A DNA stretch of 64,000 bases from Branchiostoma floridae. Taxonomy: Eukaryota; Chordata; Leptocardii; Amphioxiformes; Branchiostomatidae. The stretch lies in NCBI RefSeq assembly GCF_000003815.2, contig NC_049979.1, forward strand, positions 3,001,353 through 3,065,352, read 5' to 3'. The translations under genes were made by a program, and so were the position numbers. This document shows, in pieces, positions 20,722 to 50,700 of the stretch. The notes beneath the pieces were generated by a model. It worked only from the letters and a program-made list of their open reading frames with translations, was not told the DNA's origin and searched no databases. Numbering within the stretch: the first letter of the stretch is position 1; every line of letters begins with the position of its first letter.

Positions 20722-23700
20722 ATGTAATACGTATATATGTATTTATAATAGGAGGAACATGCATTTTGGGATGACTAGTTCATTTGATGTATTCATGATC
20801 TTTAATTGAGATTTACCACATTTGTGGAAAGATTGACAGAACAGGTGACTATCACCTTTTCAAGATGTGAACCTGGAGGTCAGACTGTAAGGTTTTAACC
20901 ACTCACTCAGGGATGGACCTTTCTGAGAAGTGTCGTGGGTTTTTTGATGAATGAATGAATGAGTACCTTTGTTGTACATATATACCCACTGGTTTGAGTA
21001 CAGGTCGCAACAAAAGAATAGTTGAGAGATACATGAAATATATATATTAATTTATAGACTCTGTTTCCCTACTTCATACACCTATGTAACACAGACAAGT
21101 TCATATTCGTAAAGAATTTAAACAAACCTTTGATTTAAAACATACCTGTTCCTACATTTTCAGAATCACAAAGTAGCGTGAAGTCAAATTCACTTAGTAG
21201 AATATGATTCTTGTCTTGGTTGACATAAAAGTTAAGCTCCCTCTTTGTTGTATAATCTACATTCTACTAGAAAATCTTATCATTGGAAAGGATCTTGAGT
21301 TTTGTTAATGTACTTCCTCCTGGCCCAGGTTGAGATGACTGGCAGCATTCTACTAGAAGATCTTCAATTCTATCATTGCAGTGGAAAGGATCTTGAGTTT
21401 CCTAGTAGAAATAAATCTTCAATATTTTTCTATTATTTACAGTGGAAAGGATCTCCAGTTTTCGTTGTGTGGAAAGGATCTTGAGTTTTCTTTCTTTTTT
21501 TCTTTCTTCAGGTTGAGATGACCGGCAGCAGCGTGTTTGACTACGTCCATCCCGGAGACCACGCGGAACTCGCCGAGCAGCTGGGGATCAAGATCTCCCT
21601 TCAGGGGCACCAGGGGCAGGGGGCGGCTTCCGAGGGGGAGGGCAGGGGTTCCACAACACCTTCCTCCTTTCCCATCCCGGAACATATAGAACCGGGTAAG
21701 CCATGCCTTTGTAATCCATGAAATATATATCCATTTCCCAACCCCTTCCTCCTTTCCCAGAACATATAGAACCGGGTAGGGAACCCTTTTCTCAGGTCAT
21801 GCTGGGGGGTAAGAACCCCCCCCCCCCCCCCCGGGACCCCGAATAGCAAGCTTGCACCTGCGGCGCTCATCTTGCTCCTTCAGCACTCACCAGTCCAAAA
21901 AATGTCCCAAAGAATCAGCCCACCAAAAAATACTGGCTACAGGCCACCTTCATGACATTGTAACCCTCCAACTACAGGCAGACAGTTAAGGAACAAAAAT
22001 TGTCTCACCACGCCGATAGCTAGGACTGAATGGTTGAAACAGTCATTCTTACACTGTGCCGTAAAACAGCGAGGGGGTGTCTTATAGGAATACATAGCAG
22101 GACATGACATACTTTTTTCTGCATACATTGAAAATTACCTGCACCAGACAAATTTTACCTGCACCACATTGAATTTAGTATGAATCATTAAAAATTTTCA
22201 GAAACCATTGCTATTTTCTTACTTTATTTTTTTCAGGTGGTAACAGTCAATGCAGCTGATAACAATCCATGTACACCAGACCTACACCATAGGACATTTA
22301 TGTATAAAACCCAGGCTAGGTGCAGGTAGACATCAGAAATACCTGCACAGATCCAATTTTTCCTGCACTAACCTGTATATTTCAAGCCCTACATAGTTTG
22401 AAACTGATTTATTCAAATGTAAACGGAAGCTGCATGTTTCATCTTCTTACTGGATGCATAGAAGTTTTGACAATGTCATTTACTTATCTCTGTCATGTAG
22501 AAACAGGAAAGGAATCTTTTCAGACATCATGTAAGCAGTTCAGGAAATAGCTTCATCACAATTGGAAGATTTATGCCCAGTCAGAGAACGGTTACTATGA
22601 AATCACTCAAATGTCAATCTTTCGACACAACATTCAGCACCAAGGAGAGGCACCATCAACAATTTAGTAGGATACTCAAGAGTGCTTACCTCCAGAAATA
22701 GCAACAAAGAAACCAACAAACTTAAACCAACAAAGAAACTGAATTGAAAAAGAATGACAAGAAAGCCTTTTTGATATTCAACACTTCTATGACTGTTCAA
22801 CCTTTAGGTCACACCAATTTTATTTGTTGGTTCACGGATTGTTTCAGAAAAGAATATCATGGAGCAACAGGGTGGAAATAAATAAAAACATTTGCCAAAA
22901 GTCTGAGGTAAACATAAGGACTAAACATAGAAAATGATAAGTTTTCAGCTTGAAAAAAGCAAACAAACGATACCACAGTACAGTAGCTGTACCTGTTTGT
23001 TGAAAATTTAAGTACAGTTTTTATGTATGCCTTTGTGAATGAAAATTTTTACTGCATTGATAAATTTACCCACAGTGTAAAGGTACTTGGGCAAATTTGC
23101 TATTCTGGAAAGTTGTTGAATGACTTCATAGTAATTTCATGGTCGAAATTTTCTGAATGGTAGCTGAAGTGAATTTTTTTGTCATTTTCGAAAAAATAGG
23201 AGTGGGTCTCCGAAAACTTATCAATTGAATTACAATGTACCTTTGTCCCAGTACAAAACACTGAACAGTCTTAGTATATACATGCAGCATGCAACAGGTT
23301 AAACTATGCCACAGCTACGTGTGCAACACGGCAATGTCTGTAAGTTTTGATTTTTGATTTGGTGCTTTGAGTATCTATAACTAATGAGCTGGAATACAAA
23401 GTATATGGCGGCAAAATGCAAGTTAAAAGATAGGCACTGTACTGTACTATCTTCTTCTTCTTCTTTCTTGTTCTCCTGGCCGAACTCTGTGTACTGTACT
23501 ATGAGTGGGGGCTATTCCATTATACTCTTCTCAGAATTTTTGTCATCTCTTTATGTGGATAGGCTGAACAAGTCTGAGCTAATTTCACTTGACTCCATCA
23601 ACTTAGGGAGTACTCCTGCACTGTGGTTGCTGGATTGACTCAAGATGACAGGGAAGTCAAACAACGTCGAGAGCAAAAGAGCAGGGAGAAAAGTTCCAAG

Positions 23701-26700
23701 CAGGTTCCGACCCAATTGGGCTGGAATATGTAACAGGGTGCGCTGATGTAGATCATAGCCGTGCCCGTATCAGGCTGATCGCATGCCGGAGATAACAGAC
23801 CAAGTGCACGATCGGGCGGCGGCTGTGCCCGGCAAATCATCTGCATTGCTGAGTGCGCTAACGAAGACAAGGCCTGACCCGTCATCGGGGTGGGAATATT
23901 ACAGGGGGACGGGCTGGCCAACGACTCACGCATTCCGGGCACGGAGGGATTTTCACTTCAAGTACTCTCCTAGGACGCCGTATTGACATGTACCCTTGTA
24001 CGGGGGAAATAGGATAGCGCAATTCAGCAGCAAAACTATTATTTCAGCCGTGTATTAATATCTCATGGTCATAACTGTCCATAAATTGCATGCCGGGGCT
24101 TGTACAAAGCAATAACTATTTGCTCCGGGTCACCGAACTATTAGCCAGTGTGACGGGTGATCTTTGACATGGGGCACCTCTCAGAAATGCATGATATTTA
24201 AGTAATGTCCATTTAATTGCGACATTTGATGTAGCAGACTATGTCCATTCTATTAGATTTTTATGTTCCGTGCAAGAGATAATTAACATTATCCGTGTAG
24301 CAAATGTTAACGCGGGTTTATGGTGTTAGGCTGGGCTATTAAAGTCGGGGGAAGTTTTTCCCAAAAGAGTTATTATCCGCCAACCTTACCAAATAATTAA
24401 GTGTTTGCGTTCAATTTACAAAGTGATGCCCGCTGCGAAGCGGGGCGCTAAAATGGCAAGCGCATCCTCGCCTAATTGGACCTAATAAACGAAGTTTTTC
24501 GGTCGTCTTCGGAAAATGAATGGAACGGTAATCCGGTAATGCACGAAAGTCCGGGCATTACGACCTGGCTCGCGGGGCTTCTGTTGGCACGGAAACGCGG
24601 GCACGCATCACCGTTGACCTCCTCATCAAGTGCAGCAGTCATGTGCAAGGTGACAGAAAGCATTTAGGCCCAGCAGACTGGAAAGGGCAGCCTGCACCGC
24701 GCGGGGTCTCTCCAGAGGAGGTCGCCTGTGAATGTTACTCCAGGCACCGGTGACACCCAGGGTGGAAGCTACAGAGAGGTGGGAGGAGGGAGAGGGACCC
24801 CTACTCGGGCGGACGCACGGCCCGGCAACTGTAATGACACGCCGGGTGCCCCCACTGTACGGGTGCCGTGCTCACATCCAGTGTAGTGGCTCCCCCGGCG
24901 AAGTCGTTACCGCTTTAACGAGACGGTTGTCGAGAACTTTATGGCTTAATCGTAAAGGGATTTTACTTTGTTATACCAAAGGATTGTTGGGCTGGAGTTT
25001 TTGTTCCTCCAGTGGACCATCTGTCTAATGCCCACAGTCTATGATATGTTGATTTTCGACCCTTGGTATTGACTAAGTCAGAGGCATGGGCTTACAACAG
25101 TGGTAGAACTGAGTTGATGAAAAAGGTCAAAATCCATGGACTAGTCTTGTAGAGAGTCTTTTTGAGAGTTTGTGGGTCTGCACTTTTGTGCATGTACCTT
25201 GTTTTCACCTCCTACTGGTTGATTGGTTCTCATTGGTTGCAAGTTTCACACATCTTTTGTTTTGTCAGTTACCATTGGTTGTAAGTTTCATGCACAATGT
25301 AGCTTTTGTTTCAGAAGTTACCATTGGTTCTACTGGGTAAGTTCCATTAAGATTTGGTTTCGTAAGTTACCATTGGTTGTAAGTTCCACAAAGCTTTTGT
25401 TTCGTAAGTTACAATTTGCTCTTAGTTTCACTGGACCATGTACAACACTTCTGAACTGTGTATGCTCCTGCAAAAATTAAAAAAACAAACAGAGAAACAG
25501 CCTAATTAAGACCAGTCTGACCCGTCACACTTCACTTTCGGTTTTCGTGTTTACTTAATTACTTTTCATGGAGACAGTCATTGTGTTAACATGCTCCGCT
25601 TCATTTATTCATACATTCGCATTCATCAAACTTCATTTTGTCAACGATTTCTTCCTTGGGAGAAAGAAAAGTGCCATATTGACCGCCGTTTCGATCCCGC
25701 CAATTACGCCATGAAATATTTACTGGTCTCATTTTCGCAGAGAATATCTCCTACACGGCAAAATCCACTTACACCTCATCCATCGCTCTTTAGATCACAT
25801 CATTCTGGTAATCTGCATTCTCTTTTGTCCAGAGTTATCCCTGTAACCACCCCACTGAAACCGATTCCCTTTTAATCCAGCTATTTGTCGTAACTTTCCA
25901 TTCAACATCTACCCGCTCCCACCGTCCCCCCGTCTGGCAGATTACTTTTCCGGGACCCTTTTCGACGCTCCTGCATTCAACATTTTCAATTTGTGGTGCG
26001 GGTAATTCCATTACTCCTCAACAATCCAGCATCCATCTTTGTGCTGATGTCGGCACGATGCTCCGAAATCCGAAATTCCGACCTACAAGGAAATCAAGCA
26101 GTCGTAGATAACTCATAAATCTGAATTCCTCCGAGGGTCCCCCCATATTGATCTGGCAGAATGAGTAGCTAATAAAACGGTTTTCCTCCATGGTTACAGC
26201 CAAGTGGTTTGCCCCGCTCAGTCTGGGTGCAAGCCCCATATTCTCCGTCGAACAAGGAGATATTACAGTCCACTCAATGAAGAGCGAATGTTGTGGAAAG
26301 AGGGTGGATCAGCAATAAGCTTGCCTTTGCTCCCAGGTGGATTTCCTGCAGAATATTTTCATTAGGAAGTTATAGGTTGGGAATTAGATTCAGCCACTTC
26401 CTCTTTCTCGGTTCGTTCGAGGCTGTCAATTACTGAGCTTCGATGGCGCGGAAGGTGTTAAGTTTGAGGAGACCCTCTCAAAAAACTTGTCGCATCATCA
26501 GTCACTCTCCCGATCTGGAGTGAGATAGCTGTACACATGTATACAACCGCAGGCTGTTATAAGAAGAATAAAACAGCGCTCTGGCCACATCCCTCACATG
26601 TAGCATGAGAGTTCATCTGAGTTGATAGAGTTCATCTGAGTTGATGAAATACATTGCGAATGAATGAAAGACCTTTATTGTACATTTATGCTCTAGTTCT

Positions 26701-29700
26701 AAGTTCTAGTCCATAATCTGCAAACTTCCTGGAAGGAATATCACGCAAACAAGCTAAGTACAGGTCATAGCGATAAGGCACAATTTCATATAGTGTTACT
26801 TTCTACATCTATACAGAGACTACCATATGCTAGTATGTAACTCTAGTTTACCTTAGTTTATCTGCTGGGTAACCTATATCCGTTGCTTGGCAAAACAGTG
26901 TATATAGGCACATCAATTTGACAGGTGGTAGTTTTAAACTGCAATGTACTGAAAATGATTTTAAACCAACGTCCGTCAACGTGATATCCCCAATTACCCT
27001 GTTTTTAAAAGCAACGGATATAGGTTACCCTACGGATAAAGGTGAACTAGCGTTACAGGTTCAACTTCTTCTTGACAGTTGTAAACATTTGGGCAGATGT
27101 AACCAATGATACAGGATTCATCTAGTTGCATGAATAGAATAAACTGTTCTCCAAAATTGGACTCTCCAAATTATCTAGCTGACTCACTCAGCCAGCTGAA
27201 GAAGACAACACCTTCCCACTCTCCTGACAATAATTTGACAAATAAGGATAAATCGCACAGGTTTTTGTGTTCATCTCTCCAGATGTCAAGTACAGACATT
27301 TTGTACCTTTACACAGACATATACATTATTGTTCCTGTGTGGTCCCTTGCAATTAGCATGAGTTGCAGGTGCTGCTTAAAATATCTAAGCTTGGGGTTAA
27401 TGACACACGAAATATATGAGTCATGACCAATGATATCTAACAGATTTTTAAAAATTCTATTAGCACAACATAATGTAAACCATCAAGCAAAGGCAAATAA
27501 AAGACTTTCTAACAGACTCTGTATTTATGTATTTACATTTACCACGTTTGTGGAATAATTGCTATAACAGGGGACTATCACCTTTTCAAGATGTCAACAC
27601 AGAGACCAGTCTGTAGGTTTGATCCACTCCCACCAGAAAGGTCCCAGACTCTTTTTGATGAGTACGGCGGGTTCTTTAATATATATAGTGGGCGTGGGAT
27701 GTTGTTCTCCCCAAACACAGAACCTCCATTCAACGTCCTATCCGAGGGACGGCCCCAGCCGTAGCTAGGTACTCATTTTCACCTGAGTAAAGTGAGGAAA
27801 GCGGTGTTAAGTGCCTTTTCCAAGGTGACACGACGGGATTCAAACTCGGTCCCAAGCCAAACACGCTGCCACTGCGCCACATGATCTCACTAGTGGTTGC
27901 TTTTGTTTCCGCAGATGTCATAGGCCAAACCATCACACCGGACTACAGGTGGGACAAGTCATGTTTCATCAGGATGAAGTCCACCCTGACCAAGAGAGGG
28001 GTACACGTCAAGTCTTCTGGCTACAAGGTGGGTACACCTCAAGTCTTCTTGCTACAAGGTGGGTACACGTCAAGTCTTCTGGCTACAAGGTGGGTACACC
28101 TCAAGTCTTCTGGCTACAAGGTGGGTACACGTCAAGTCTTCTGGCTACAAGGTGGGTACACGTCAAGTCTTCTTGCTGCAAGGTGGGTACACGTCAAGTC
28201 TTCTGGCTACAAGGTGGGTACACGTCATGTCTTCTGACTACAAGGTGGGTACACGTCATGTCTTCTGGCTACAAGGTGGGTACACGTCAAGTCTTCTGGC
28301 TTCAAGGTGGGAGCACCTTTGGTTTTTTTATCTTCTTGAAGATGGAGCTACCATAACTGCTTTGGGTCTAAATGATGTATGGATGTAGTTCTATCCCAAG
28401 CTCTCCACATTTATGGAAAGAAATAAAACTGCTCTGCTCTTAACATCACAGAACCCACACATGACAGAAAAGGTGGGATCCTTCGTGTTCCACTGTCTCA
28501 TAAAAAAGGAGTCAAACCCAAGAAGTTACATTTTAGGGACCTTAGACTAGAGTAGTCGCTTACTATATTGTTAACAATTGTAAACTTTATGGATTATGGT
28601 GATTTTTGGTGGGTAGGCATGTGGGGTCAGCAAGTCTCCTGTTGGATGGCCTTGGTACTGCAGCAGCATTTTTTTAGTTTTATGTTTGGTCCTGGTTTAT
28701 ATTGTTTCAAGGATTTGGAAAACATTATGCTGGAAAGCAAGATCAACCCAAAAAAACAGAGCCCCCCTAGGAAGATTGTGTGGAATTTGGCATAAACAGT
28801 TTCAGGGACTGAATAGCCAAGTTCTCTTCCCAGCTCTCCAATATCATCAAGTAGTCCCTTTGCAAAATTCATAAATATCTGGGAAGCAGGTCAATAGGGG
28901 GGGAGGAGGGGATTTTTGTCCTTCACAGAGGATGGAATGGGCAAAATTTTTGTCTGTCCCCAGCCTCAAAATTCAGTCAAAGGATGGCTGCTGGCTAGAG
29001 CCCTGGTGCACAGATGTCCCCCATAAAACAGATTTGTGTGGCTGGACCACCGCTGCTGACCTGGAAAACTCCAGGTTAAGTTGCTGAGAAAGTTAAGTTC
29101 AGGGCCCCTACATCAATTTTGATACCACATGGGTGTCTTTTGTACACAATTACATGTAAATGCCACAAATCAATCTGGCTGGGTTTCACTGCAAAAAGGT
29201 CAATACATGCAGTCCACTTCCTTCCAATGCTCTTGATATCACCTGATTTTTGTAAAAGTTCCGACCGAATTTTCGATGATGAACTTGGAGTTTGTCCAGA
29301 CAGTATCAGAGATAGCAGGACAGACCTGCATTTAGGCATCAAAAAATCTACTTGGGTTTTCAGACAGAATAAAGTAAGATAAGGCCACACCAATTTTATT
29401 TGTTGGTTCTCGGATTTTTCAAAAATGAAAAAAAAAAGCAATCAGACATCATAACAGCAACAAGCAAGGAGGAAAACTTCATAAAACTGAGTGCACCAAG
29501 GCTTAAACCTGGTCCTTGGGCTTTGCTTTCCTTATTTTTTTTCCAGGTAAACATGTCTTTTTTATATTTTTCAAAATCCTACAACTAACAAGTTAAACTG
29601 GTGTGGCCTCATATAAAGGCAATATACAAAGATTACATCACAATCCTTGGAGAAAAACTTGAATTTGGCTACCTTCACACCTAAAATGTTGAGTCTTAAG

Positions 29701-32700
29701 ATACAAACTTTCCTCCTTATCCTCTTAGTATGCTGAACTTCCAGTTCAGTATAGTTATTCTTTTTATTCGAGAAACAACAAAATGGCTTGGTGTGGCCTC
29801 ACATGGAGAAAAAAGGGGGACAAAGCAATCTGTTGTGCTGTTGATGAAGACTGGCTTCTGATTTACTCCGGCCATTGTCAATGTCATCAAGAGAGGGAAA
29901 ATTTACTTCCCAGTCGGACAATATGGTTTTGTTTAGTCTGCCCAGTAAAGTTTGGGCTCCTTTGTCGTGGCTGCTTTTATCCGAGAGAAATTTGGGAAAA
30001 GTGATTTGGCCGGTGTGTGTGTGTGTGTGCGTGTGAAAAGTGCCCCCATCACACGGGGAGAAAAGTCCTGACAGTACAGGCCGAACCATTATGGGGTGGT
30101 TAGGGAGGAAACGTTGGGAGCCGGATCGAGAAACGAAAGTGCTTTCTACAAAAATCAATAGGAATGCACTTAAAGTAGGAAGCTCCTTTGAGCCTGGGCA
30201 GGCTTTTTGCCTGCAGTGATCTCAGTGCTCAGACCCAGCTCCATTTGTAAATTCCTGCATTTTGGAATCCCCCCCTCCCCACAAGTACAATGACGAGTCC
30301 AGAAAAAAATGCAGCGTTCACGGCTAAATAATGAAGTGTGGGAAAGCCTCACCCTGCCGCGCGAGGCAAAAACCTTCAGCCGCGGGGCGACCTTCGGCAA
30401 ACTGGAGCACATTCATCAGAAACCCGATTGTTTACCCCTCTTTGTTATCAAATTTCCAACATATCCAAACGACACTGTATCCCCAACTAAGTGACAACGA
30501 ATGGCGGCTGGTATGCATGGGAACCCATTAGGATTGATAGCATCATTGTTGGGCCCCGCTTTTTGTTGTCGGTTTGCCGCTCAAGTTGAACATTACAAGG
30601 TCTCCCCGGAAAAGTCCTCCCCGAAACAACGCCCTTGGGTGGGATTCCAGCCTGCCCTCTGACACCTATTCGCTTTCTGTCTGCTCCCGTTTCCGAGCTG
30701 CCGGCTCCTGGTTGGCTGTCGCCGACGGTTTTATCGCCGCGGAGCGCGAAACGGGCGGGGGCCGTTCCCTGTCCGGGAGGTCACTCTGGGTGTCAGAACA
30801 GGTGCAGATTCAGCTGTGACTTATTCAATGTAATGATTTTTGTAATGGGACGATCAATATAATTTAGTAGCCGGAAAAGAGTTCCTATTGATGTCAAATA
30901 TATGGATTTTACGTCACCCGAATCACACCTTCGGCCAGCGGCGCAAGGGATCGTCTCATTAAGCTTTAGAGGGCGGAACAACTTTACGGATGGTTTGCTG
31001 CGGAAATGTAATGTCCGTCTATCAAAACGATCATAAATATCCTCCCAAACAACATAACAGCTCCCTCGCTATGCGGAGTCTTCAATTTTTCCCCCACAGT
31101 CTTTCACAAAGTAAAGTTTACATCCATTTCTTACACTCGCTGCCCCTCTTGTGAACTATTTCTAGCTTATCATTAAGTTTAGAGGCCTGGAGTATCAATT
31201 GTACGGCAGCGATTCTCGCCGGCAAATTGCCATCAACACCTGCACAGGCGATCCTTGCGAGGCGTTCGGGTTCCCCTTCAGAAGGTAGCCAGTCAGTGTA
31301 ATAAACAGATTACAGGGTGAGTTGTGCCAGACAAAAATTAAGTCAGCCGTTGATAAATATTACAAAAGCCGGGAAAATTGCTTTTCTATCTCGTTGTATC
31401 TTTGATCTTCATCGGGGGCTAATATTACAGGTCCAGCGTCCATCGATCAATACCGCGTAGATGAGAAGCGCCCGGGTATCAAGGAAACCATGTCCCTGTG
31501 AAAGAACCTTTCCCTCGGAGCAATACCGGACCATTCCAAGGTCAAATTAAAATAATCACCAAGTTCCGAACCTGCACCACACTTAAACTTGTACAACAAA
31601 GGATTGCGGGCCAATCTTTTGATTATGCATTGTACAAACCATGTCTACACTGGATTTTTTTAAACATTTAAAAACAGGAGACAAAGAAAAATAACAAATT
31701 CTTCATCAAATTTAAAAATCATTTTAGGCCACATCAATTCAATTTTTGGTTCTTGGACAGGGGTGCATATAAAACCGTTTTTCTTGTTGGACCTGAAAAA
31801 TATTCAGGGGACCTGATTTGGGACTGATTAAAAAAACAGGTTATACAGGCACTACAGTGGCAGGCGTTCCTGTGTTTTAAGGGTTACCTTTCCAAGAAAG
31901 TAACAAGAGCCAAGTAGAAGAGAATTGCTAGTCCTTCTTACCAAGTTTCTACGGTCAAACTTGGTCTAACTTAACAGAGGCAGGAGGGGAGTCTGCATTG
32001 TCAGCACAACTGTTACAGGACCGAGGCACCTGCCATCGTATTGACATTGGCAACGTCAAAATGTTGGGCAAGGGAACTGGGTTATTTTGCATAACTGCGA
32101 AGGCTGCCCTTGAAGAAAGGAATGTCAGGAAGGGAGAGGGGGGGATGTGTTGTTGGTAGTTGGAAAGTTCACCTTGCAACAACACAAACTAGCTTTCATT
32201 CAAAATGGTAATGTAAAGAACATCTTCAAAACCCGGGGGTTGGGGGTGGGAGGTTGTGTGTTGTAACAGCAGAGTCTTTAGCCCAGAACCCAAAGGTCCT
32301 GGGTTCAAAAGTTCAGTAGCCCTGGTTAACTAACTGGGTTGCACCCTCATGTTCTGACACGTCTACATGTACAAATGTATGTTTCGACATTCCCAATATA
32401 GTATGTTTCGACACCCCTAACCCTAAGCCAAACACTAGCATAGGGGTGTCATAAAGCAGGAAACATACATGTAAGGCCACACCAATTCAATTTGTTGGTG
32501 CACATATTTTCTAAAAGTGATAATATAGCATTCAACATCATGAAAGAAATGAGTATGAAGGAAAACTTGAATACGACTGTATTCACTTCATGAAACTGTG
32601 CACCAAGGCATAAACCTGGACCTCAGACTTTGTTTTTCTAGTTTAGCATACTCTTTTTATGTTTTCAAAATCCAACATATTAAATTTTTAAGGCCTAAGG

Positions 32701-35700
32701 GCATCGTATTCCGTATTTTGGAACATAGGGCCTGTCCCTGTCCTAACGGTTCTTTAATTTGGCAATCTGGATAAGAATGTCATCCCCAGTGATAAACTGG
32801 CAGAAGGGGGGATACAAGCTTAGCCATGTTTGGGATTGTTTTCTCACCGCAAAAGCACCACCTACAGTACATCGGCTACATATAGCGGTGAGAAGCAGAA
32901 CTCCAGTTAGAAGCTGTGACGAAGGTGTCTGAGAGACGTAAGCGCAATGTAAGTACCTGCTGGTTGTGTTAAAATTATTCTCCTATATGAAATGGTTCTT
33001 TAATTAGTTGCTTTTTCTTTCGTCAGGTAATACACGTCACGGGGCGGTTACGTCCGCGGCTCAGCCTGTCGCACAGCCAGCGTAACCCGATCACCATCCT
33101 GGGCCTGGTCGCCGTGGCACACGCCCTCCCCCCGCCAACCATCAACGAGATCAGGATGGAACAGAATATGTTCGTCAGCAGGGTCACCATGGACCTCAAA
33201 ATCATCTACTGCGAGCCCAGGTAAAAGTCTTTCAGTGTTGTCACTGCCCTATTCTTAGACAGTTCTAGGGTTAGAGTTTGGGTTTGGGTAGAAAGAGATC
33301 AGGATGGAACAGAACATGTTCGTCAGCAGGGTCACCATGGACCTCAAAATCATCTACTGCGAGCCCAGGTAGGAGTCATACAGTATGCCAAAAACTTAAG
33401 CACCTGGATATAGTTTTGGAAACGGTCAGACGTTTCAACTACTATCCAGTAGTTTATGCCAGTGACACTGAAGAGTATATCCTATCTGGGAATTGATATG
33501 TCATTCAGTGTCATTCAGTGTTGTTACTAGAGTCATTCATCAGTGTTGTTACTAGGACTGCCTTATGTTCAGACAGTACTGATATAGATAGATAGATAGG
33601 AGTGGTGGAACATAGGCACATAGGGCTGTCAGAACATTGTATACGTGTGCAAACGCAACCTCATTTTGCTTGGCGCAACTTCATTTTAAACGCAGGCAGT
33701 GCAGTGTGCAACCTAAAATTTTGCAGTTGGAACACTGCTTTCAAATTTCCCCCACATTCCTGCATAATCTTTATTTATTACCTGATAAGATGAAACATAA
33801 GTAGTTACATGTACCTGGAAGAAAAGTTAATGTATATTTAGGTGATTTGAAGAAAGTAATAAATTGAAAGTGGGGCAACCTGAAATGTTGATGGCACAAC
33901 CTGGCTTTTGACTCAGGTTGCCACCCAGGCAGCCTGGCTGAAAAAAAGTATTTTGAGCCCTGCATTGGGACGCACACTTTTGTTATTTCTATTTGACTGT
34001 TGTTTGATACAAGCACCCTGCAAATGGTTCTTTCATGGAGGAATTAAGCATAAGAAAGTGCCCACGGAGTTTTGTCTTGCAATCAATATGGAAAGATACA
34101 CCGGGGGATTCCAGCCTAAGTAGTGCTCTTACCAAAGGAGCAACTGGTATTTGGCATAAAAACTTCAGAAGCTTATTGCTGAAACACCACTGCTTGGAAC
34201 TAAGAGCCCTTTTAGTTTCATCTGTATTAAGATGAAATCTCGTGGTACTTACACTTCACTTGGAGCTTCTCTACTGAATTGAAAAGCAAAATTTACATTC
34301 ATTACTGTAATATCTTTGCATCTAGTTTGACATCACAATGGAAAATGAGCCAGTTTCCTTACAGTAAAGACTGGTGTTGTTATTGGCCCTGTCCTTGGTG
34401 CTGAAGGGTTGCCTCTTGCTGTTTCAGTGCAAAACAACAACAACAATCCGTACCCAAATCCTCATACTTTCAAGCACAGTTGTAGACATCTTAACCACAG
34501 TGTCTGTAGCTATGATTATGAATGCCAATGGCTCTTTTTTTGTGGACTTAAAAAAGAAATTTAATTGTACTAATGGATTCCTCTTTACACTTGTGATTTT
34601 CAAAACTTGAAGAGTACCACGTTGGAGGTTATGCCTCTATGCTCTGACACCCCTATGTTCCAACACCCCTATGTCCTAGTCCTAACACCCCTATTTTCTG
34701 ACACCCCCTAACTCTATAGCCCTAACTCAAACCCTAACATTAAAACATAGGGGTTTCCCCACCAATGTTGAAAGCCTTACATTTCATGTACATGAAGTTA
34801 CTGTTACAGTCAGTAGATTCTAATGGATAAAGAAAAACATCTTTAGCACTGCTGTTTAGTTTCACATAAAAATCGTTCCAAATATCAAACCTTATAGCTT
34901 CAACTTTCTTTTTATTTTCGCCCCCCTCCTCCCGATTTAAAGCCCAGCAGGTGATGGACAGAGCCGAACTCATCCCACGGAGCCGAGTCCCAATGGATAC
35001 GTACCGCTTCTGCGGACTCCAGATATCGCTCTACCATAGCAATTTGCCATCAAGAAGATCATAAAGGGAAACGCATAACCTAATTGATTTTTTTCTCTCA
35101 GCCGCGCGCGCGCTCGGCGTGTGACATTCATTTCCAACCCCCGTTTTGTGAGTTTGCGATATTAATACAAGTCGAAGTATCTGGCAATTTCCTGCCCGCG
35201 GACGGGAATTATTTACCACACCTGGATCAATTATGTTTCATCAACTCTGCCATTTTAATCTCTGCTCCTTCCATTTGCAACATGTAATTTTCTGATCTGC
35301 AGAGATTTATTCCTGAAATGGTCCTGCCAGATCCTCTTTCATGCCCAGCAGATCAATGGGGGAGGAAAGAGTCTCCGCTCTTTGCTCTTTGCTGTGCCTC
35401 CTTCTATTGAAGCCTACAGAAAGGGAAGCCCAACCTCTTTGTGTCTAGAGTTTTCTTCATAAGAAAGGATGAACAACAGCAATCCTCCAAGGACCGTTGA
35501 CCACTTTGGTGACTTTGGACGATGATGAAGACTTTGTGACCAAAGCTTCAGCCTTGCCTGCTATGCATGTACTTCGTATATATTCCTTCAGGCTCATTTG
35601 CGTGGAAGTCCAGGAAATTTTGGAAGGGATGAGCACATCCCATTAATGGATTATGGCAGTCATTATTGGCTTGTAGAATGCCATTAAGGGATCTATAATA

Positions 35701-38700
35701 TTTTGATTTGATTAGAGGTAAGTCGAGTCGTGGATGCAGAAAGAAGAGACGCTGTCCCCTCGCTCTTCTCTCTCCGCTATCTTCTCCCAGCATCTTTCCT
35801 CGCCAATTGGGTCGTGAACATGCGAGCCATAAGCGGGTATTCATCTGTCATCCTCGCACAAACCTGGCCCGACCTTGGGGCGGCCTGTCTTATCTCCGGG
35901 CGGCTCCCTATTAGCGACGGGGCAGCGATACGACGTCACCGCCGCCAGATTTCCTACTTCTGACACACACATACAGGTTCGGGGCTGGAAATCCTGGGTA
36001 TACAAGCCAGGGCTGCCTCCACTTTTAAATCATTGCGTGCATTTTTGGGAGCTGTTGGTTTTCGTCGCTGAATTTGTCATTAAAGCTTACGGAAAAAATC
36101 TCTATATCAGGTGCATGAACTTCTGAAATTTTTGGTTCGTCCCAACAAGCAAATTTTCGTCCCAAGGGTCCAGGTCCGGGTCTTGCTGTACGCCAGAAGC
36201 ACTTTTGTGCACCAAAACTGTGAACTGTACAATTAATTCATGACAGTGGGTGCACTTAGATATTTGTATAGGGATACGAATGATAAGTTACTATTATACA
36301 CTCAAGTACACAGCGTGTTCTTGACATTTAAGTGTTAAATTATAAGAAAATATTTCTTGTGCAAAATTTTGGAGTTAGCTGTTGAATTTCAGATTCAACC
36401 TCTCAAGAGAGGCAGTAGTGCTTTGCTGACATTCTCTTTGATTTTGTGTTCATGTGCACCAGGAATTGTTTCTAGATCTTTAGGTTTATTGTTTTACAAT
36501 ATACAAAAAAAAAACCATTAAAAATCTCTTTTTTTTAAGTCAGGTGCACCAATGCACCTATTCTGAAAAACAAACTTCAAGCCCTGAGTTTATACAGACC
36601 TGATGTGATCTGTTGTCGAGGTTGTCTTGTGGGACATGCTACCATTCAAATTGTGATCTAGGTGCTACTGTTACATGTAGGTATGTGCTCGTCCCATTGG
36701 TGAGGGGGATATCACAAACGTTCTTATTACAATATCAAAGACAACAGATGTCACACGTGCGATCAATGGCTTATCAAAGTGGTCAGTCGGAGGAGAAGCA
36801 ACTTCAAAGGGTTAATCCGACGAGGGGTATCGCCGTTCGGCCGGCTTTGCCGAATGGAGCCCCTTGAAATTAGACCTTTTTACGCACGACAGGGCAGCTT
36901 AGTTTTTATTCTCTTATTCAAAGTTAAACCCGACCCTTTTACTATGTTAATTTGGAGGGCCCAATGGGCTGTAGGTTTTCCTCTTGGAGGTTGTCGGCCC
37001 TGCAAGCTGCTCGATAAATGCCTCTATAGCACCACCATTGGATAGACTCGGCTTCATAAATATGGCATCGCCTGTTCCCGCGACATCCCCGAGGATTTCC
37101 TCTAACGCAGACACTGTATTTGATCTAAAAACCATAACTGCGTTTCCTTGTTCATTACGCCGTTATGAAATATGTAACAGACCAAAAGACATCTTTCCTA
37201 CCTTGTTACTCGACACTAAAGGTTCTATTACAGACTTAGGAGGAGAGCGCCGCAGGAAATGCCCCATGACTAAAAACACGAGCTCGTCAGCGAACAGATT
37301 CTGGGGGATTTGAAAGATCCTTGGGGGGCAAGAGGGTGGCACCGAGGCAATTTAGCTGGTGTATCGCATACAGACATGTTTGACTGGGTCTTTTGGAGTG
37401 GAAAAAAGGGTAAAAGAAGTATATTTTTATTGCATGTTCTTACCCTGAGGGATAGGGTATGTCAACGACATTTGTAGGATGCTATTCTACAGCTGTATAT
37501 GGTCAGGGTTAGTAACACAGGAAAGATGGCACTCAACAATTCTTACTGAAGTATTTTTCTTTGTTATGTCTGACTCTGAGTTACTTGTCTAATGTACAGA
37601 TTTTTGGTTTGCAGAATTTTTTTTCTTTATTTTTTGTTTCACTGATTTCTTTTGATGTTGATAGCTTATATCTGGGGCCTCCCCCCAGGGTATATTGAAA
37701 ACCACTACGTTTCCCCTAGTAAAATGAAAATAGAACAATTTTGCAAGAAAATACAATTCTAAGGTCACTCCAATTTAATTTGTTAGTTCTCAGATTTTTT
37801 CAGGAGCAACAGGACAAAAAGCATGTTTGCTGAAAGTAATCAAAAGTACAGCTTTGATATAATTGAAAAAAATGCTGCAATAATAAACATATACCCACAT
37901 TGTACATTGTATAGAGAACTAATTAAGGCTTTTTAGCCCATTTACTATACTGGAAAGGGAGCTGTCATGATTTGGGGGGGGATAGGAGTGAAAAAATAGA
38001 ACCAATTAATTAAATTGGTGTAGCCTAATGAAGAAATTGTTCTCGTTGCAGAATCACAGACTATATGGACCTGGCGCCATCTGACGTTGTGAGCAAGAGC
38101 TGCTATGACTTCCTTCACGCCGAGGACGTAGAACCATTCCGAAGGACACACTACGACTGTAAGTACCAAATCTATATACTTGTATGCCTCGATGAAGGTT
38201 AGACATTCAGGTAATAAGATACCCCAAAAAGCAGTTCCTCAAGCAACTGGATAAAAAAAAGCAGTTACTCAAGCAACTGGATATGATTTTGGTAACGGGT
38301 CAGACATTTCAGATAACATCTACTATCTTTTAGTCAGTGACACTGAAGAGATCTAGAAGAAACTGTGTATTTGCTTGTTTTTTATATTCAGTGTATATAA
38401 AAAACACACTTTCTACAACTTTGCCCCCCAAAAATGTTGCTTCACTAAGGCTTCATTATGAAATCTAACTATAGTTAGGAAGGTTGAACAAATGACTTAG
38501 AACACACAGTATGGTATACCAAAAAGCAGATTGGGAGTTTACTTTGGCTTTCTATGACATTAGCATACATTTTCCAATATTCTTTTCCTATCAGAATCAA
38601 AACAACATGGAGTAATAGTTGAAAAAAACATTTCTTCATATCTGTGTACTGTGCCTGCCCTTGCTCATAAGAAATTGATTGATTTTCAATGACTGTTGAC

Positions 38701-41700: not shown

Positions 41701-44700
41701 GGGCAAATTTTCTTTCAGCTTTTGGATGGATAAGCCTTGAAGGTGTTGACAGATCATCATAATATTTGGTATGTTTTGGAATATCTCTCAGCTTGTTTGT
41801 CGTTACATTAGAGATGTATTTCACTGATTAACAATCAAGACAGACACTTGTCTAATGTTGTGGGAGAGATGTAAAATGTAGGATCAAGAAATCAGCTTCA
41901 TCTTGGAGGGAGTGCGAACGTAAGGGGGCGGGCTCCTTTGGGTGGCGCGAGCCGGATGATGCATTATCGACAACGAGAGGTGACAAATGATGAATAGCCA
42001 GGTATCAACACCTGCCCGCGCAACTCTCCAGGAGGAGGGGGGAATTTACAGGCGGCAATAAAACGGACAGCGGTCGTTTTTTCTCTCCCCTGATCTGAGT
42101 CACCCCTCGTCTGTGCAAACAGATAAAACCGGTTTTACCCGTCCGAGGTCGCCCCGGCCGCCCCGAATCCCCTGTAATTTACCACCCAACGTTGACAGAC
42201 AGCCGAACTTTTACTATCTGTATCAATTAGGAATATTGTTTTCAATATGAACAAGCGCCGGATGCTCCACCAAGACCTTTAGGGTGAGAATGCAGCTAAT
42301 GCATGTTTCTGGACTGGAAGTGATGCTGTATGGTTTAGAGGTGCCCCGAGGGAGAGGGTGACTGATGTCTTTTATGGGCCTCTTGCTGTAAAGCCTTTTC
42401 ACTCACTGCTCACATGGATTGGGCTGCTCAGAGTATAGGAATCGATATGGGCTACAGGGCAATTCTGATAACTGAGGTTAAATTTGAAATGGGAAGTGTG
42501 TTTCGACCCAGCTTTGGCTAACAGAATTCTGTTCTGCCACTGGGAGTAGCAAAACGGAAATGTGCAACTTATTCCACTGTCCTTGGTGCTAAAACAGTCA
42601 TTGCTGTTGAAGTTCATTCTCAACGGGTTTGAAACTCTTGCGAATGTCACAGAATTGCTGCTGCTAACTTAATTTACAAACCATCGGCACTGTCCTCGGG
42701 ACTGACACAACGTGGTCAAAGTGAAGACTTTAGAGAACAGTACATGCTGCTTACTCTACTTAGCACTCAGCACTTATGTCTAGTAATGAGGAAGAGTATA
42801 AAAAGTTAAACACACATCACTACCAGTGGACCAGCCCCCTGCTGTAGTGGCCTGCACAAATGTGTGGCCCAAGGGCTACTTGAAATGGAGATGGGCGCCA
42901 TCCCTAAGCATCTGCACAGATATATGGGCAATTCTAACTTCTTCTTTTTTTATAGATACAAATTCAGGGTATTCTGCCACTGGGACTATAAGAAAGGAAA
43001 TGTGCCAGATGTTCCACTGTCCCTGGTGCTGAAAAAGGCGTTCATTTGCCTTCAATCGAACAATAAGTCTGGAAAGTTTCCACTTAACTAAATGTACAAA
43101 GGATTTCTGTAGTTTCTTTACACAAGAAACAGGCTCCGTTTCTGGTGCTGGTACCACATGTGAAGGTTTCAAAGAACAGTTCAAGAGATACTTCAAATAC
43201 TTGTCCTAATTTGCCACTGGTCATAATGAAAAGGACAAGTGCAGCAAGCAGATTTGGACTCTCTTCCAGAAGAGAAATTGCTAACTGGTAACAGGCATGA
43301 TTTTCGTTATGTTGTCCAGTTACCACTTGTGGCTACTGGACAATGGCGGGTGCATCTGGGTGCAGACATGTTGTTTATGCTCATTTGTTTGTTTATTGCA
43401 GTGATAAACAAGGGTCAGGTGTTCTCCAGTTACCATCTGTGGATGGTGGGTATTTCTGGGTGCAGACATGTTGTTTATGCTCATTTGTTTGTTTGTTTAT
43501 TTCAGTGATAAACAAGGGTCAGGTGGTGTCCAGTTACTACCGGTGGATACTGAAGAACGGTGGGTACATCTGGGTCCAGACGTGCGCCACCGTCACCTTC
43601 AACACCAAGAACAACAACGAGAAGAGCGTCATCTTCATCAACTACGTCCTCAGGTGACCTTACATTCTTCTCTCTCAAATTCATTGACTTTTTTCATCCC
43701 AAGAGAAGTGGATTACCCCTATAAGTTATGAAAGTTTGAAAAGAACATTCAGTCAGGTGGAAACAAAGTGGACCTATTTTGGGAAGCGTTTGTGTGTTTG
43801 ACAGTTTGCAGAAGACCAGCATAACTCGATAACACCTGGATGCATTGTATTGATATTCGTTATGTGGGTAGGTCTTGATGAGACCTGCCTGGAAAAGATT
43901 AGATTTTGGCCCTACTAGCAGGTTGTTAGGGTACTGCAGGGGAACTTCCAGGTTTGATATCCAGTTTTTAATAGTTTGTTTTTTTCCAGTTTGACTTCCG
44001 TTCTACAGATATGTTCCTAATGATGTAGTGTTGTACACGGGAGTTGTGACAGGCTGGGGTGATCAGTGCTTTATCACTGCACCGCCTCCTGCAACTTCAG
44101 AGATAAGATTGAGTTTGGTCGCCCCCAGGCGAGAGGTAAATCTTCTGTCCTGGGTTCTCCCCGCCACACGTGTGGCCGTCCTGCCCCATACATCAACAAC
44201 AAAACAAACGGCGGCGTCCCATACATTGTCCCCCTTTTGCTGTCAGTGCCATCTGTATAGCCCGCATCTCGGACTGCCTGGAGACAAGATTACGTCCCGC
44301 GTTCTCCCGGGCAGGATGGAGGATCTCCTCGGCCGTCGTGAAATACGGCCAGCTGTCAGCTTTGACGAGGTTTGGACGAAGTTGAAGCGTTTCAGCACTC
44401 GGATATATGTAGGCTATTATACAAACAGACGGGTGCTTCTTCTGCCAGATTAGGTATTAGCGCACATAATGCTGGGGGCTTGTCTGGAAATCTCTGATGC
44501 AAATAATCACAGGGAAGTGTTTGTAGCTGATAAATCATCATCTACAACTTTGTGACTCTTCAAAGAAGAACTGCGTTTGGTTTTTACTTTGTACAGCTTT
44601 GTGCTTTACTTGACTTTGACTTTTCTTTACATATGGTAAAATGTAAAACCAGGATGTCAGCACTCCTTTTTAAAACAAAACAAAAAACGATGACAAGAAA

Positions 44701-47700
44701 CCAGAGTAAACAAACTTTCTTCATTCTTTCCTTGCCCTGATTTGACCTCTTTAACCCACACTGCACTTGATGTAACAAGTTCTATCATAGTTCCAGGGAA
44801 GAACTAACATTGATTTAAGATGACAAAACAACAACGAGAAAGTCTTGTAGTCTTGACTTTGTATTGCCTAAGTTCCTTTTTTTACCTTTGCTAAAAAGGT
44901 CTGTGAGCAGCATAACTGGAAAAAAGCCTTAAATGGAACCTAATTGTATTTAGTAGGTGGGTAAGGGTCGGAAAACACGAAGGTAATGTTTAATACTAGA
45001 CCCCCTAGCAGCTTTCTAAGGTACTGCAGTGGAACTTCCAGTTTTGATATCTTGTGTTCTGGTCATCTGATAATTTTCAGTGGTAGATACATTGGTTCAG
45101 AAAGTTAATGTTGTAAGTTTGGCCCCTCTAGCAGCTTTTCTGGAACTGCAGGGGCCAATTTTGTTTCAACCTTTGTATGAGAATAAGCCATGAAGGTCTT
45201 GCCGGATCGTCATAATTTTTGACTATCTCTCAGCTTGTTTGTCATTACATCAGAGATGTATTTCCCTGATTAACAATCAAGACAGATGCTTGTCTAATGT
45301 TGTGGGAAAGATGTAAAATGTAGGATCAAGAAATCAGCTTCATCTTGAGTGATGCTCAGCCAGTCGCAGTGTTTAAAGAATCGGAGTCGTTCATCTCGTG
45401 AGGAGGAACGTTCTCCTGCTGTTCGAGCCGGTGGATTTCCTTTGTCTGAGCGGGCACGCAGGCACAGATCCTTTTAAGCAGCTCAGCGCACTTAACAAAA
45501 CATCGCGACAGATTTTTCAGACTTTGCCGCATGATGAATCTCCGTGGCGACGTACCATAGATATGCTCTCGACAAGATTTACAGTCATGAAAATCAACTT
45601 ACAGTAAAAATATCAGGCAAAATTGTTGCAATGTCCTGAATATCCTTCAAAAGGATGCACCAGTTTCGTCCTTGTCGTGGCTTTTTAAAAAGAATCGTAG
45701 TCCCAAACGATTCACAGATTGTTTGGAATGAAACAGGGATGACAGCATTATTGTTTATGGATAGTTAATTAGATTTCATAATTGCTACGTTCCCTGTACA
45801 TATCATGCATAATTTTGATAAGGAAATCTGGGTGTACTGGCATGCCTTGGGGGCGTTTGTATCCAGAAGTAATCCCTTTTTCATATAAAATCATAAACAA
45901 GATTAAATGGCAGTCGAGGGGAAATATTTGTCATATCACAAAGGAAAATCCCCCAAACCACAACAATCAGAGCAAGTCATCAAGTCCAAATAACCCAGGA
46001 GGGCAAATGGCACCCGGCGCTCTTCAGAGGAAAGACTTTTGGTTCTAATGGTCTCGGTTTGATTACAGTGACACCTGTCAATAGTTCTGTTGCTTCTGAA
46101 TCAGAGCTACAAGAACATGAGTAACTTAGAGAAAATAACAGGACAAGCTTTTCTGAATAAACTATAAACTATAAGCTTTTCGAGGGCTTCAAGGGTGAAG
46201 ACTTTCCATTCCTAATGGTCTTAGTTTGATAACAGTGACACCTGTCAATAGTTCTGTTGCTTTTCTGAATCAGAGTTGCAAGAACATGAGAAGAAAAGGA
46301 TTCACAGTGACTTAGAGCAAATAACAGCACAAAGTGAAGATTTTCCATTCCCATTTAAATGGTCTTAGTTTGGTTAGTGACAGCTTCAGATAGTTTTGCT
46401 GCCTTTCTGAATCAGAGCTATCACTACTCGAGAACCAAGCAACCTACAGTAGGGCATGTGACATTCCAAGTTCTTTGCATGCTGAAAGTTTTCACATTTA
46501 TTCCTATTCTAATAATAAATACATAAACTTGCAAATAAACTCTCATTTATAAATAGTCTCAAAAACCTTTTAATCACATTGTACTGCAGCAATAGTATTG
46601 TTGCACTAGTTGTAAACGTTTATATCAATTTTTGTTTATCTATTTATTTATTCGATCGTTACAATTGGCTATGCAAATAACCAACATTTGTGACTGCATT
46701 TGTAAGCAGTGACACATTGCTGCAGTACAATACAAACCAGTCAGAATTACCCTGAGGAAAGTGACAGACGGTCACCAAAACGTTGGTGGGAATAAGGCAG
46801 GGGTTGTGTGAAAAATTAGTCTCTGTATTTAGTGACATACATGTACCAACCTGATGAATCTATTCACAGATTGATTGATTGATAGATTGACAGACAAAAC
46901 ACATCTGCACGACACGGCCGTTTCCAAGGCGACTCGTTCCCCTAACTTCTCAAGGACGCGTCGCCTGGGGCGCCGCCATCTTTATTCATGTCCGTCTCCT
47001 CCAGAGACTGGGAAATAAACGTCTATTACTTCTGGGTGGGTTGGAATCCGCCAGGGAGCCCGGGATTTGGGCGAGCTCGAGGTAAAACCGGGATCTTAGT
47101 CCTGCTGTGACGCCGCTGCTTTCAGGGGGACTCCGGGATTCCTCACGACCCAGAGCGACGCTTTGATGGATGCGCAGAGCGATGAAAACTTTATCTTCCC
47201 GTAATTGGCAAAGGGGAGAAGAGAAATGGATTGTTAGGAGGGAATGAATGGACGGTTTACTTACCGACATGCACAGGATGGTGGTGAGGAATGTGTGACT
47301 GTAGGTTTGTTGAATAAGAGTTGAATTGAAGACAATGGATTTAAACAAAAGGACAATGGATTGAAACAAAAGGATGCTGATCTGGACGATCAACTGAAAA
47401 ACATCTATACATGCATGGTATCCAGCGCCTCTACTCTTTTTCACCTAAGTCAAGTTATTATATAATGATTAAGGTGTAATGGGTCTTTCCCAAGATCAAA
47501 TCATTGGAGCCTGTCAGGGACTTGAGCTGGGGCAATGGCCGAGTGGGTAGAGTGTTCAGCTTGCACTCAGTAGGTTGTGAGTTTGATTCCTGGCCGAGTC
47601 ATACCAAAGACTTTAAAAATGGTACAAGCTGCATCCTCTGCTTAGCCCTCAGCATTTGGGAAAGACATGGTAGTGGAACACACACCACTACTGTACATGT

Positions 47701-50700
47701 AGTGATTGTTGACTAGCCCCCTACTGTATTTATTTCTGTTTTATTTAGACAGGGTGGACAACTCAGTACTATGCGTTCTGCTTTTCAGTTGTGCCCTGTA
47801 CACAAAATAGCATAACAAGAAATAAGATAAACAATGAACAAATCAAAGTAACAATATATACATAAACATAAATCAAAATCATAACTCATTAATCGAAGTT
47901 AGTGCCGGGTCAGGAGGTCAGGGGTCAGCAGTGATTACCGTTTCTTAGCAGTTTCTTGAACGACAGTGCAGAACTGGCCACTTTAACCGTTGGCGGCAAC
48001 TCGTTCCATGAAAATGCACCCCTGTATTCGAATTTTCTACGGCCAGATTCAAGTCTGACTTTCGGTAGTTGCAGTGATAGGTTTGAATTAAGCCTTGTTG
48101 CGTATGTGTGAGATGTTCTGTTAAATATTTGTAAGTATTCTGGTAACTGCCGATGGATTGACTTGAAGACGGTTTGCAGGAGGTGCATTTTCCTACGAGA
48201 TGCCAGAGATTTCCAACCTAATGTAGACAGATGGTCATTATCTACATGTGATCTACGTGACAGACCGAGCACAAGCCGTGCTGCACGGTTTTGGAGTTTC
48301 TGGAGATTGTCAGAGAGAGATTTTCCGCAGTTGCCCCATACAGTATCACAATAATCAATCTTAGGAAGAATCATACAGTTAAACAGCATGGAAAGTGTCT
48401 TAGGTGGTAAAATGGGTACTAAACGTCTTAACACTCCCAACCTAGAGGATACTGCATTGCATAGTTTGTTCATGTGTATACTCCATGTTAGACAGGAATC
48501 GAACCAAACACCTAGATATTTAAAACATGCAACAACTTCCAAAGATGTACCAGAAAGGGTAAGATTTAGTTCTTCTGTTTCTAGCCGCAGCCTTCTTGCA
48601 GTGCCAAAAAGCATTGACTTGCATTTACGGACATTGAGAGTTAGCCTGTCTACAACAATCTGTAGTGATTGTTGACTAGCCCCCTACTGTAGTGATTGCC
48701 CAAAAGTAGTGGCCCAAGGCTACAAAAACAGAGATGGGTGCCACCCTACATGTATGCACCATCTGGAGCAGATAGGACTTTGACTTAAAGTACATTATTT
48801 TGAACCCAGAACCTTTAGATCTTAAGTCAACAACCCTAAAGCTAAGGGCACAACCAGACATCATGCAATTTGTCTGTCTATTTTTTGGTGAGGCCACGTC
48901 CGCCACGTATTTCTGAAAACGTTCAGGCTGTACAGCCTAGGCGCGTCGCCCGTATTGGCACGTACGGGGGGCGAATCCGCAGCCCGATGGCACACAAATT
49001 TTTCCTGCATGTTAAGTTCCACGGCGTGTCTGTGTGCTCCAAAATCTGTCGGATTTCCTACAGTCCCAAAAGATTGCCCACGTTTGGCACGTAGACAGCA
49101 CGTATTTGCACGTACGGCAGGTTGTGCCTTAGCTTAAGAGTACCTTGCAACTTTCCTCACTTTTTTCTGCCCCGCTCCCCCTCCAGTCTGCCGGAGTACA
49201 AGGACATTCCCATGGACATCAGCCAGGTCCCCGACCTGCCCCAGGACCCCCCGGACACCTCCGACTCTTCCGACACATCCGACAGCGAATCAGACTCCAA
49301 CCATGACACAGGTGATTACTTCCTTTCTTTCGCTTTGTCCGAAAATGATTTCATGAGGCTGTTAGAACATAGGATATTATTATATACTTTCCCTTTACAC
49401 AACACCCCCAACTCTTCTGACACATTCAAAAGCAAATGAGACTCCAACCATGACACAGATGATTACTTTCTTTCTTTCTTTCTTTTTTTCCAAAAATAAC
49501 TTCATGAGGCTGTTAGAACATAGGATATTATTATATAGTTTCCCTTTACACAACACCCCCAACTCTTCTGACACATTCAAAAGCAAATCAGACTCCAACC
49601 ATGACACAGGTGATTACTTCCTTTCTTTCTCTTTGTCCGAAAATGATTTCATGAGGCTGTTAGAACATAGGATATCATTATCATATAGTTTCCCTTTACA
49701 CAATGACCCCAACTCTTCTGACACATTCAAAAGCAAATCAGACTCCAACCATGACACAGGTGATTACTTTCTTTCTTTCTTTCTTTTTTTCCAAAAATAA
49801 CTTCATGAGGCTGGTAGAACATAGGATATAGTTTCCCTTTACACAACACCCCCAACTCTTCTGACACATTCAAAAGCAAATCAGACTCCAACCATGACAC
49901 AGGTGATTACTTTTTTTTTTTTTTTTTTCTGAAAATAATTTCATGAGGCTGGTAGAACATAGGATATAGTTTCCCTTTACACAATGACCCCAACTCTTCT
50001 GTCACATTCAAAAGCAAATCAGACTCCAACCATGACACAGATGATTACTTTCTTTCTTTCTTTTTTTCCAAAAATAACTTCATGAGGCTGGTAGAACATA
50101 GGATATAGTTTCCCTTTACACAATGACCCCAACTCTTCTGACACATTCAAAAGCAAATCAGACTCCAACCATGACACAGGTGATTACTTTCTTCTTTTTT
50201 TTTCTGAAAATAATTTCATGAAGCAGGTAGAGCACAGGATATTGGAGTTTCCCTTTATACAACAAGTAAAGTCTCGCCGGCTTACATTTCTATACCAATC
50301 AGACATCTTCCTCAGAGCGGTGAGAAGGAGCCCTCCAATTAAAAGTTCTGACCCAGAAGGCATTAAGACGTAAGCAGTTGAGACTTAAATGGTTGTGTAA
50401 AAGAAACGTCCAACATTAATCCTTTCTTTCCTTTCTGTACTGATTATATAGTCAGATATGCTTGTTGGCATCTACATGTACCAAATATGATGCACACAAA
50501 CATACATTTGCTTTATGTTGTACAGGTGTAACATTATGTTATCCGTAATCAATATCGAATGCTGTGTATCCTACAAGTACATTGTTGTGTATTATCATGA
50601 GCAGCGTTCATCCAAATAAATCATATTCATAATAGTATACGTTCATCACTATTGTATCATTTATAAGGGAAGCAGATAGATATTAAGCCTTAAACTTAAA

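What the first reader, a model, noticed from the sequence alone, without database searches (positions are those of the whole stretch)
21261..50270. Six splice junctions of one gene carry tandem duplications that span the exon-intron boundary
In five of eight visible NPAS exons, a block containing the exon edge, the splice site and some intron is duplicated next to the real junction: exon b both edges, exon c donor (10 donors in series), exon d donor, exon f acceptor (two extra), exon g donor (six extra). Exons a, e and h show none. Coding edges being the duplicated unit so often is hard to put down to random minisatellite birth, since exons are under 5 percent of the window. Possible causes are replication slippage or DNA breaks at junction sequences, selection for backup or competing splice sites, or tolerance of insertions that leave a working outer site. 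The sequence shows the duplications directly; cause and function are inference.
Basis: seen in the sequence. Interest (0 to 1): 0.9.

Follow-up and report, generated by a model that had tools for sequence, protein, structure and literature searches.

The report
Duplicated splice junctions in lancelet gene
A probable lancelet gene carries extra tandem copies of several of its exon edges, splice sites included; this matches the known lancelet oddity called "mirages", and a small sample of the same genome shows such copies about as often in nearby introns, so exon edges do not look like special targets.

Summary
The gene is an NPAS1/3 orthologue, very probably lancelet. Of 15 exon edges, 5 are spanned by local duplications under a uniform rule (b acceptor, c donor, d donor, f acceptor, g donor). 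A sixth (b donor) has an exon-edge copy stopping 3 bp inside the intron. Exon c has ten donors in series. Exon g has six extra copies, four with GT. Exon f has one extra acceptor plus an exon-only fragment.

The kind is already named: "mirages", reported in lancelet Adh3, globin, TnC and PGBD5 genes.

A partial survey of the same genome (244 exons, 473 edges, 29 stretches) found junctions spanned in 18/473 (3.8%), adjacent intron positions covered in 119/3114 (3.8%) and wider noncoding DNA at 5.9%. Junction/adjacent-intron ratios were 1.00-1.50 across settings (widest 95% range 0.64-2.60): no strong hotspot, mild enrichment not excluded. In the 239 edges of profile-defined exons, positions 60 bp inside exons were depleted (3/239, ratio 0.23-0.30).

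Best reading: local tandem duplications are common throughout this genome; copies inside exons are purged, those at junctions tolerated because the exon-proximal site still works. NPAS is an upper-tail gene.

The parts
3054..3143 (+). NPAS exon a; no duplication across either edge
21284..21347 (+). copy of the exon b acceptor region (intron, AG, 19 bp of exon)
   Evidence: exonic 18/19, intronic 33/42 identical to 21470-21530
21512..21695 (+). NPAS exon b
   Evidence: joined translation of b, c, f matches NPAS3/NPAS1 structures 5sy7/5sy5
21735..21778 (+). copy of the exon b donor edge with GT; only 3 intronic bases shared
   Evidence: exonic 40/41 plus 6 gap columns
27915..28027 (+). NPAS exon c
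27999..28311 (+). 31-bp unit x 10.1 at the exon c donor; ten GT donors 28028-28307, the first being the authentic one
   Evidence: only match in the genome
33027..33220 (+). NPAS exon d
33292..33384 (+). copy of the exon d donor edge (77 bp exon + 16 bp intron)
   Evidence: exonic 75/77, intronic 12/16
38052..38158 (+). NPAS exon e; no edge duplication
43310..43470 (+). one extra exon f acceptor with exon start, plus one exon-only fragment
43506..43653 (+). NPAS exon f
49187..49311 (+). NPAS exon g
49255..50264 (+). about 140-bp unit x 7 at the exon g donor; 4 of 6 extra donors keep GT
51395..52914 (+). NPAS last exon h, coding part (stop codon follows); acceptor not duplicated

Best explanation
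These are 'mirages': lancelet minisatellites born as local tandem duplications that happen to straddle an exon-intron boundary. The genome holds such duplications in many places. Those inside exons are purged. Those in introns or across a junction survive because the exon-proximal site (first donor, last acceptor) still gives normal mRNA. Copies then expand, homogenise and decay like other minisatellite units. Shown here: the duplications, their commonness in noncoding DNA, the lack of strong junction enrichment in my sample, and depletion 60 bp inside profile-defined exons. Inferred: selection as the cause of that depletion, faithful splicing at NPAS, and the birth mechanism (slippage or break repair).
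For: Survey of 473 edges: 18 spanned (3.8%) versus 119/3114 adjacent intron positions (3.8%) and 5.9% of noncoding positions more than 100 bp from known exons. Junction/adjacent intron 1.00 (95% 0.64-1.42), 1.26 (0.93-1.85), 1.50 (0.96-2.60) under three settings; in profile-defined exons 0.99, 1.22, 1.26. Profile-defined exons are depleted 60 bp inside: 3/239, ratio 0.23-0.30. Independent cases with the same anatomy: myosin P-loop exon with 17 acceptor motifs including the authentic one, myosin exon with seven donor motifs including the authentic one, kinesin acceptor x3, globin acceptor array of about 150-bp units, like the published BflGb6 mirage. The splice dinucleotide is intact in 15 of 17 alignable copies, near what about 8% divergence alone would leave. 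Exonic and intronic parts diverge similarly, 42/618 versus 86/1017. Passages of PMC3087553 report regular splicing at other mirages.
Against: NPAS itself is an outlier: 5/15 has p 1.7e-4 to 1.3e-3 at survey rates, and its own distant noncoding DNA is not especially duplicated. Under two of three settings junctions are 1.26-1.50 times adjacent intron with lower limits just below 1, and positions 10 bp inside exons are 1.38-1.69 times (limits include 1). The exon depletion is absent in the paralogue-defined exons (9/234 at 60 bp inside versus 33/1541 adjacent intron) and so is not significant in the pooled set. Spanning varies between stretches more than binomial (p = 0.011). The exonic part of the exon d copy is better kept than neutral decay predicts (2/77; p 0.0025 if 12.5% is expected, post hoc).
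Confidence: 0.73

Rival explanations
1. Exon-intron junctions are mutational hotspots for tandem duplication, for example through breaks or slippage at splice-motif sequences or transcription-linked structures.
For: 5 of 15 NPAS edges versus 2.9-4.0% background, shift p about 0.01; overdispersion between stretches; junction/adjacent-intron ratio up to 1.50 (0.96-2.60) under the loosest margin.
Against: Ratio 1.00 (0.64-1.42) under the main setting and 0.64 (0.38-1.02) against wider noncoding DNA. A ratio up to about 2 could also come from slower loss of similarity when one copy is a constrained exon (inference).
Confidence: 0.13
2. Extra splice sites are kept by selection as backup or competing sites that tune NPAS splicing.
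For: Exon d copy keeps 75/77 exonic bases while its intron part decayed; c decoys are intact donors, and the third and sixth extra ones would extend the exon in frame.
Against: Decoys of b, d and g would bring stop codons; 2 of 6 g decoys have lost GT; over 15 mirages exonic parts are not clearly protected.
Confidence: 0.07
3. Assembly artefact (haplotype mis-joins or collapsed repeats).
For: Copy numbers of lancelet PGBD5 mirages differ between two assemblies, and one globin mirage was described as aberrantly assembled in the genome draft.
Against: Copies differ from each other in scattered bases and one is interrupted by unrelated intron sequence; resequencing data upheld the PGBD5 repeats.
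Confidence: 0.04

Closest known systems
Lancelet 'mirages' (Adh3, globin BflGb6/BflGb9, TnC, PGBD5)
   Same: Minisatellite-like tandem copies spanning donor or acceptor boundaries, many with intact GT/AG, units from about 10 to 160 bp, seen at both edge types (passages of PMC3087553; of PMC3902484).
   Different: Here five or six boundaries of one gene are affected, with up to ten donors in series; expression and instability are untested.
Intron gain by tandem duplication (potato RdRp)
   Same: Tandem duplication crossing an intron-exon boundary (abstract of PMC4974935).
   Different: In potato the duplication made a new intron; no new intron is shown in NPAS.

Membership tests
lancelet mirage minisatellite | tandem repeat unit spans an exon-intron boundary | tested here: met
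   five edges with at least 8 bp each side; b donor only 3 intronic bases
lancelet mirage minisatellite | copies lie on the intron side of an intact authentic junction | tested here: met
   authentic donor is the first of each series, authentic acceptor the last; protein conservation supports the limits of b, c and f
lancelet mirage minisatellite | host is a lancelet | tested here: inconclusive
   no call names the species; indirect support: 513-Mb genome and a globin exon whose acceptor lies in an array of about 150-bp units (1 of 5 globin loci fetched), as published for BflGb6; that it is the same gene was not tested
lancelet mirage minisatellite | length polymorphism or somatic instability | not testable with these tools
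   no second haplotype seen for the g array; no reads
lancelet mirage minisatellite | regular splicing is undisturbed | not testable with these tools
   no RNA data
intron gain by tandem duplication | duplication creates a new spliced intron within former exon | not testable with these tools
   no RNA data or other lancelet genome

The most novel reading that the evidence does not exclude
In a subset of lancelet genes, NPAS among them, junctions really are preferred duplication targets or preferred survivors, and the spliceosome follows a strict position rule (exon-proximal site wins) even among ten or more near-identical neighbouring sites, making these arrays natural tests of splice-site choice.
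Probability: 0.18. Interest if true: 0.65.

Novelty: new member of a known kind. Interest (0 to 1): 0.36.

Why it matters
In the papers I saw, mirages are reported gene by gene. This adds a gene with several, and a first small estimate that roughly 3.4-4.7% of exon edges in sampled myosin and kinesin genes (16 to 22 of 473, by setting) carry a spanning duplication, about what nearby intron shows. That points to a general high duplication load plus purging, and leaves a good natural system: arrays of 7 to 17 near-identical splice sites in which correct choice would have to rest on position, not motif. They are also candidate raw material for new introns, as proposed for lancelet globins.

Tried and rejected
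Strong junction hotspot: not supported as a general rule. First pass with myosin motor exons alone gave 9/151 by the coverage rule (11/151 by the listing rule) against 4.7% far noncoding; kinesin alone 4/88 against 5.9%. Exonic protection of copies: suggested by exons b and d, not upheld over 15 cases. Dispersed mobile element as source: the c array has only its own match; the g array contains a roughly 60-bp stretch with dispersed relatives, but its exonic part is local. Second haplotype: none seen for g. Eight bHLH loci (L001-L008) gave no hit in the same scan and were not pooled.

Dropped rows and rules: of 142 myosin matches I used the 76 that lay in 20 stretches I picked; of 134 kinesin matches I used 45 in nine stretches and left out the two extra kinesin copies at C2:31967610 and 31967761 as decoys. 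Paralogue-defined exons needed at least 3 loci and 45 bits, and hits above 92% identity were dropped. The coverage rule gives 18/473; the listing rule in the same call prints 20. The divergence count used profile-defined and NPAS exons only; 4 of its 21 rows (overlapping arrays, NPAS g among them) could not be aligned and were left out, and two dubious rows (L022, second L036) were dropped to reach 15; with them the count is 51/678 versus 89/1034. Splice-site weights were recalled, not trained. The five globin loci L040-L044 served as positive control only. L009 and L010 did not enter the survey.

Papers: PMC3087553 and PMC3902484, passages seen; PMC2206037, passages seen, only tandem repeats in scaffolds mentioned; PMC4974935, abstract and outline seen. 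The original Adh3 mirage paper (PMC117041) is not held, so its content is taken from PMC3087553. Searches on mirages and boundary duplications; their listings (capped) showed no genome-wide survey of lancelet mirages, but most subscription papers are not held.

Full report
What was claimed.

Gene and place. The window is G000:C1:3001353-3065352 of a 513-Mb assembly of 431 contigs. Joined exons b, c and f match NPAS3 and NPAS1 of solved structures (5sy7, E 2.8e-46; 5sy5, E 4.5e-35). I set exon limits from conserved protein and splice sites: a 3054-3143, b 21512-21695, c 27915-28027, d 33027-33220, e 38052-38158, f 43506-43653, g 49187-49311, h 51395-52914 with the stop codon following. No call names the species. 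The genome size, and a globin exon whose acceptor lies in an array of about 150-bp units as described for B. floridae BflGb6, make a lancelet, probably B. floridae, very likely.

The duplications. A uniform self-comparison of the whole window found them. Under a rule of at least 8 bp on each side of the edge, 5 of 15 edges are spanned: b acceptor, c donor, d donor, f acceptor, g donor. The b donor has a copy of 41 aligned exonic bases that stops 3 bases into the intron. Exon c has ten donors, nine with the same score and the last weaker. Exon g has six extra donors, two of which have lost GT. Exon f has one extra acceptor and one exon-only fragment.

Chance within the window. Of noncoding positions more than 1 kb from exon edges, 2.9-4.0% (six settings) lie inside such duplications. 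Shifting all 15 edges together round the first 59.9 kb reaches the observed number with p 0.0085-0.0112. The neighbouring cadherin-like gene, from about 59.9 kb to the window end, gave no hit in the same scan, though TRF lists short arrays at 61995-62039 and 63852-63881. So NPAS is unusual, but it was picked because it is unusual.

Survey. I located exons of myosin motor and kinesin genes in the same genome, fetched 20 stretches of 10 kb and nine shorter ones, and added further exons of the myosin stretches found by protein similarity between loci. This gave 244 exons (121 profile-defined, 123 paralogue-defined), 473 edges, 29 stretches. Junctions spanned: 18/473 (3.8%; exact 95% 2.3-5.9%). 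Wider noncoding positions, more than 100 bp from known exons: 5.9%; junction/noncoding ratio 0.64 (95% 0.38-1.02), and 0.74 (0.42-1.29) and 0.95 (0.58-1.58) under two other settings.

Closer comparison. Against intron positions 40-250 bp out, the junction ratio is 1.00 (0.64-1.42), 1.26 (0.93-1.85) and 1.50 (0.96-2.60) under the three settings; in profile-defined exons 0.99 (0.64-1.41), 1.22 (1.00-1.72) and 1.26 (0.92-1.62). So a strong hotspot is not seen, and a mild excess is not excluded. A mild excess is also expected if similarity is lost more slowly when one copy is a constrained exon (inference). Positions 60 bp inside exons: in profile-defined exons 3/239, ratio 0.23-0.30 with upper limits 0.46-0.61, a clear depletion; in paralogue-defined exons 9/234 with no depletion; pooled 12/473, ratio 0.64-0.86 with limits including 1. 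Paralogue-defined exons may include copied exon fragments, which would hide a depletion, but I did not test that. Limits: two gene classes, related genes, splice sites predicted by recalled weights, some unrecognised exons counted as noncoding.

Other cases met. A myosin P-loop exon has 17 acceptor motifs, the authentic one included, in a roughly 50-bp array; another myosin exon has seven donor motifs; another donor has a 97%-identical copy at 90 bp; a kinesin exon has three acceptors at about 151 bp spacing. One myosin stretch has 4 of 12 edges spanned, so NPAS is not alone, and spanning is overdispersed (p = 0.011). NPAS at 5/15 has p 1.7e-4 to 1.3e-3 at survey rates, before allowing for its having been picked.

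Are the decoys kept? In 15 alignable mirages, exonic parts differ at 42/618 positions and intronic at 86/1017. If only the copy drifts in the exon and both copies drift in the intron, a ratio of 1:2 is expected; 1:1.24 gives no sign of protected decoys, though local alignment trims the worst parts. The splice dinucleotide is intact in 15 of 17 alignable copies. Using the decoys of b, d and g would bring stop codons. In exon c the third and sixth extra donors would add 31 or 62 residues in frame, and a stop lies further on. The exon d copy is a single exception with a well-kept exonic part (75/77) beside decayed intron (12/16, then an interruption).

Known kind. [quoted passage not shown] Passages of PMC3902484 report them in PGBD5, cite Adh and TnC, and note copy-number differences between assemblies with resequencing support. 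The potato RdRp case (PMC4974935 abstract) shows boundary-crossing duplication making an intron.

Verdict. Real, already named in kind, new in this gene as far as my searches show, and best explained by a high general duplication load with tolerance at junctions. The open question worth pursuing is how splicing picks the exon-proximal site among many equals.

Noticed in passing
L018:3832-4933: Myosin P-loop exon with 17 acceptor motifs (authentic one included) in a roughly 50-bp array, each carrying the start of the P-loop coding sequence; the same stretch has 4 of 12 edges spanned.
   Followed up: partly
L036:789-1203: Kinesin exon with two extra acceptor copies at about 151-bp spacing, with about 92 bp of exon in the aligned copy.
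   Followed up: partly
L044:409-1054: Globin exon acceptor inside an array of about 150-bp units, like the published BflGb6 mirage; gene identity not tested.
   Followed up: partly
49300-50270: The exon g unit contains a stretch of roughly 60 bp with many dispersed relatives in the genome.
   Followed up: no
865-1323: A roughly 166-bp unit repeated about three times upstream of exon a, largely open in one frame.
   Followed up: no
59900-64000: Exons of a second, cadherin-like gene (judged by eye, no family search) with no hit in the local duplication scan.
   Followed up: no
33144-33384: Exon d copy: exonic part nearly intact, intronic part decayed and interrupted; more contrast than neutral decay predicts.
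   Followed up: partly
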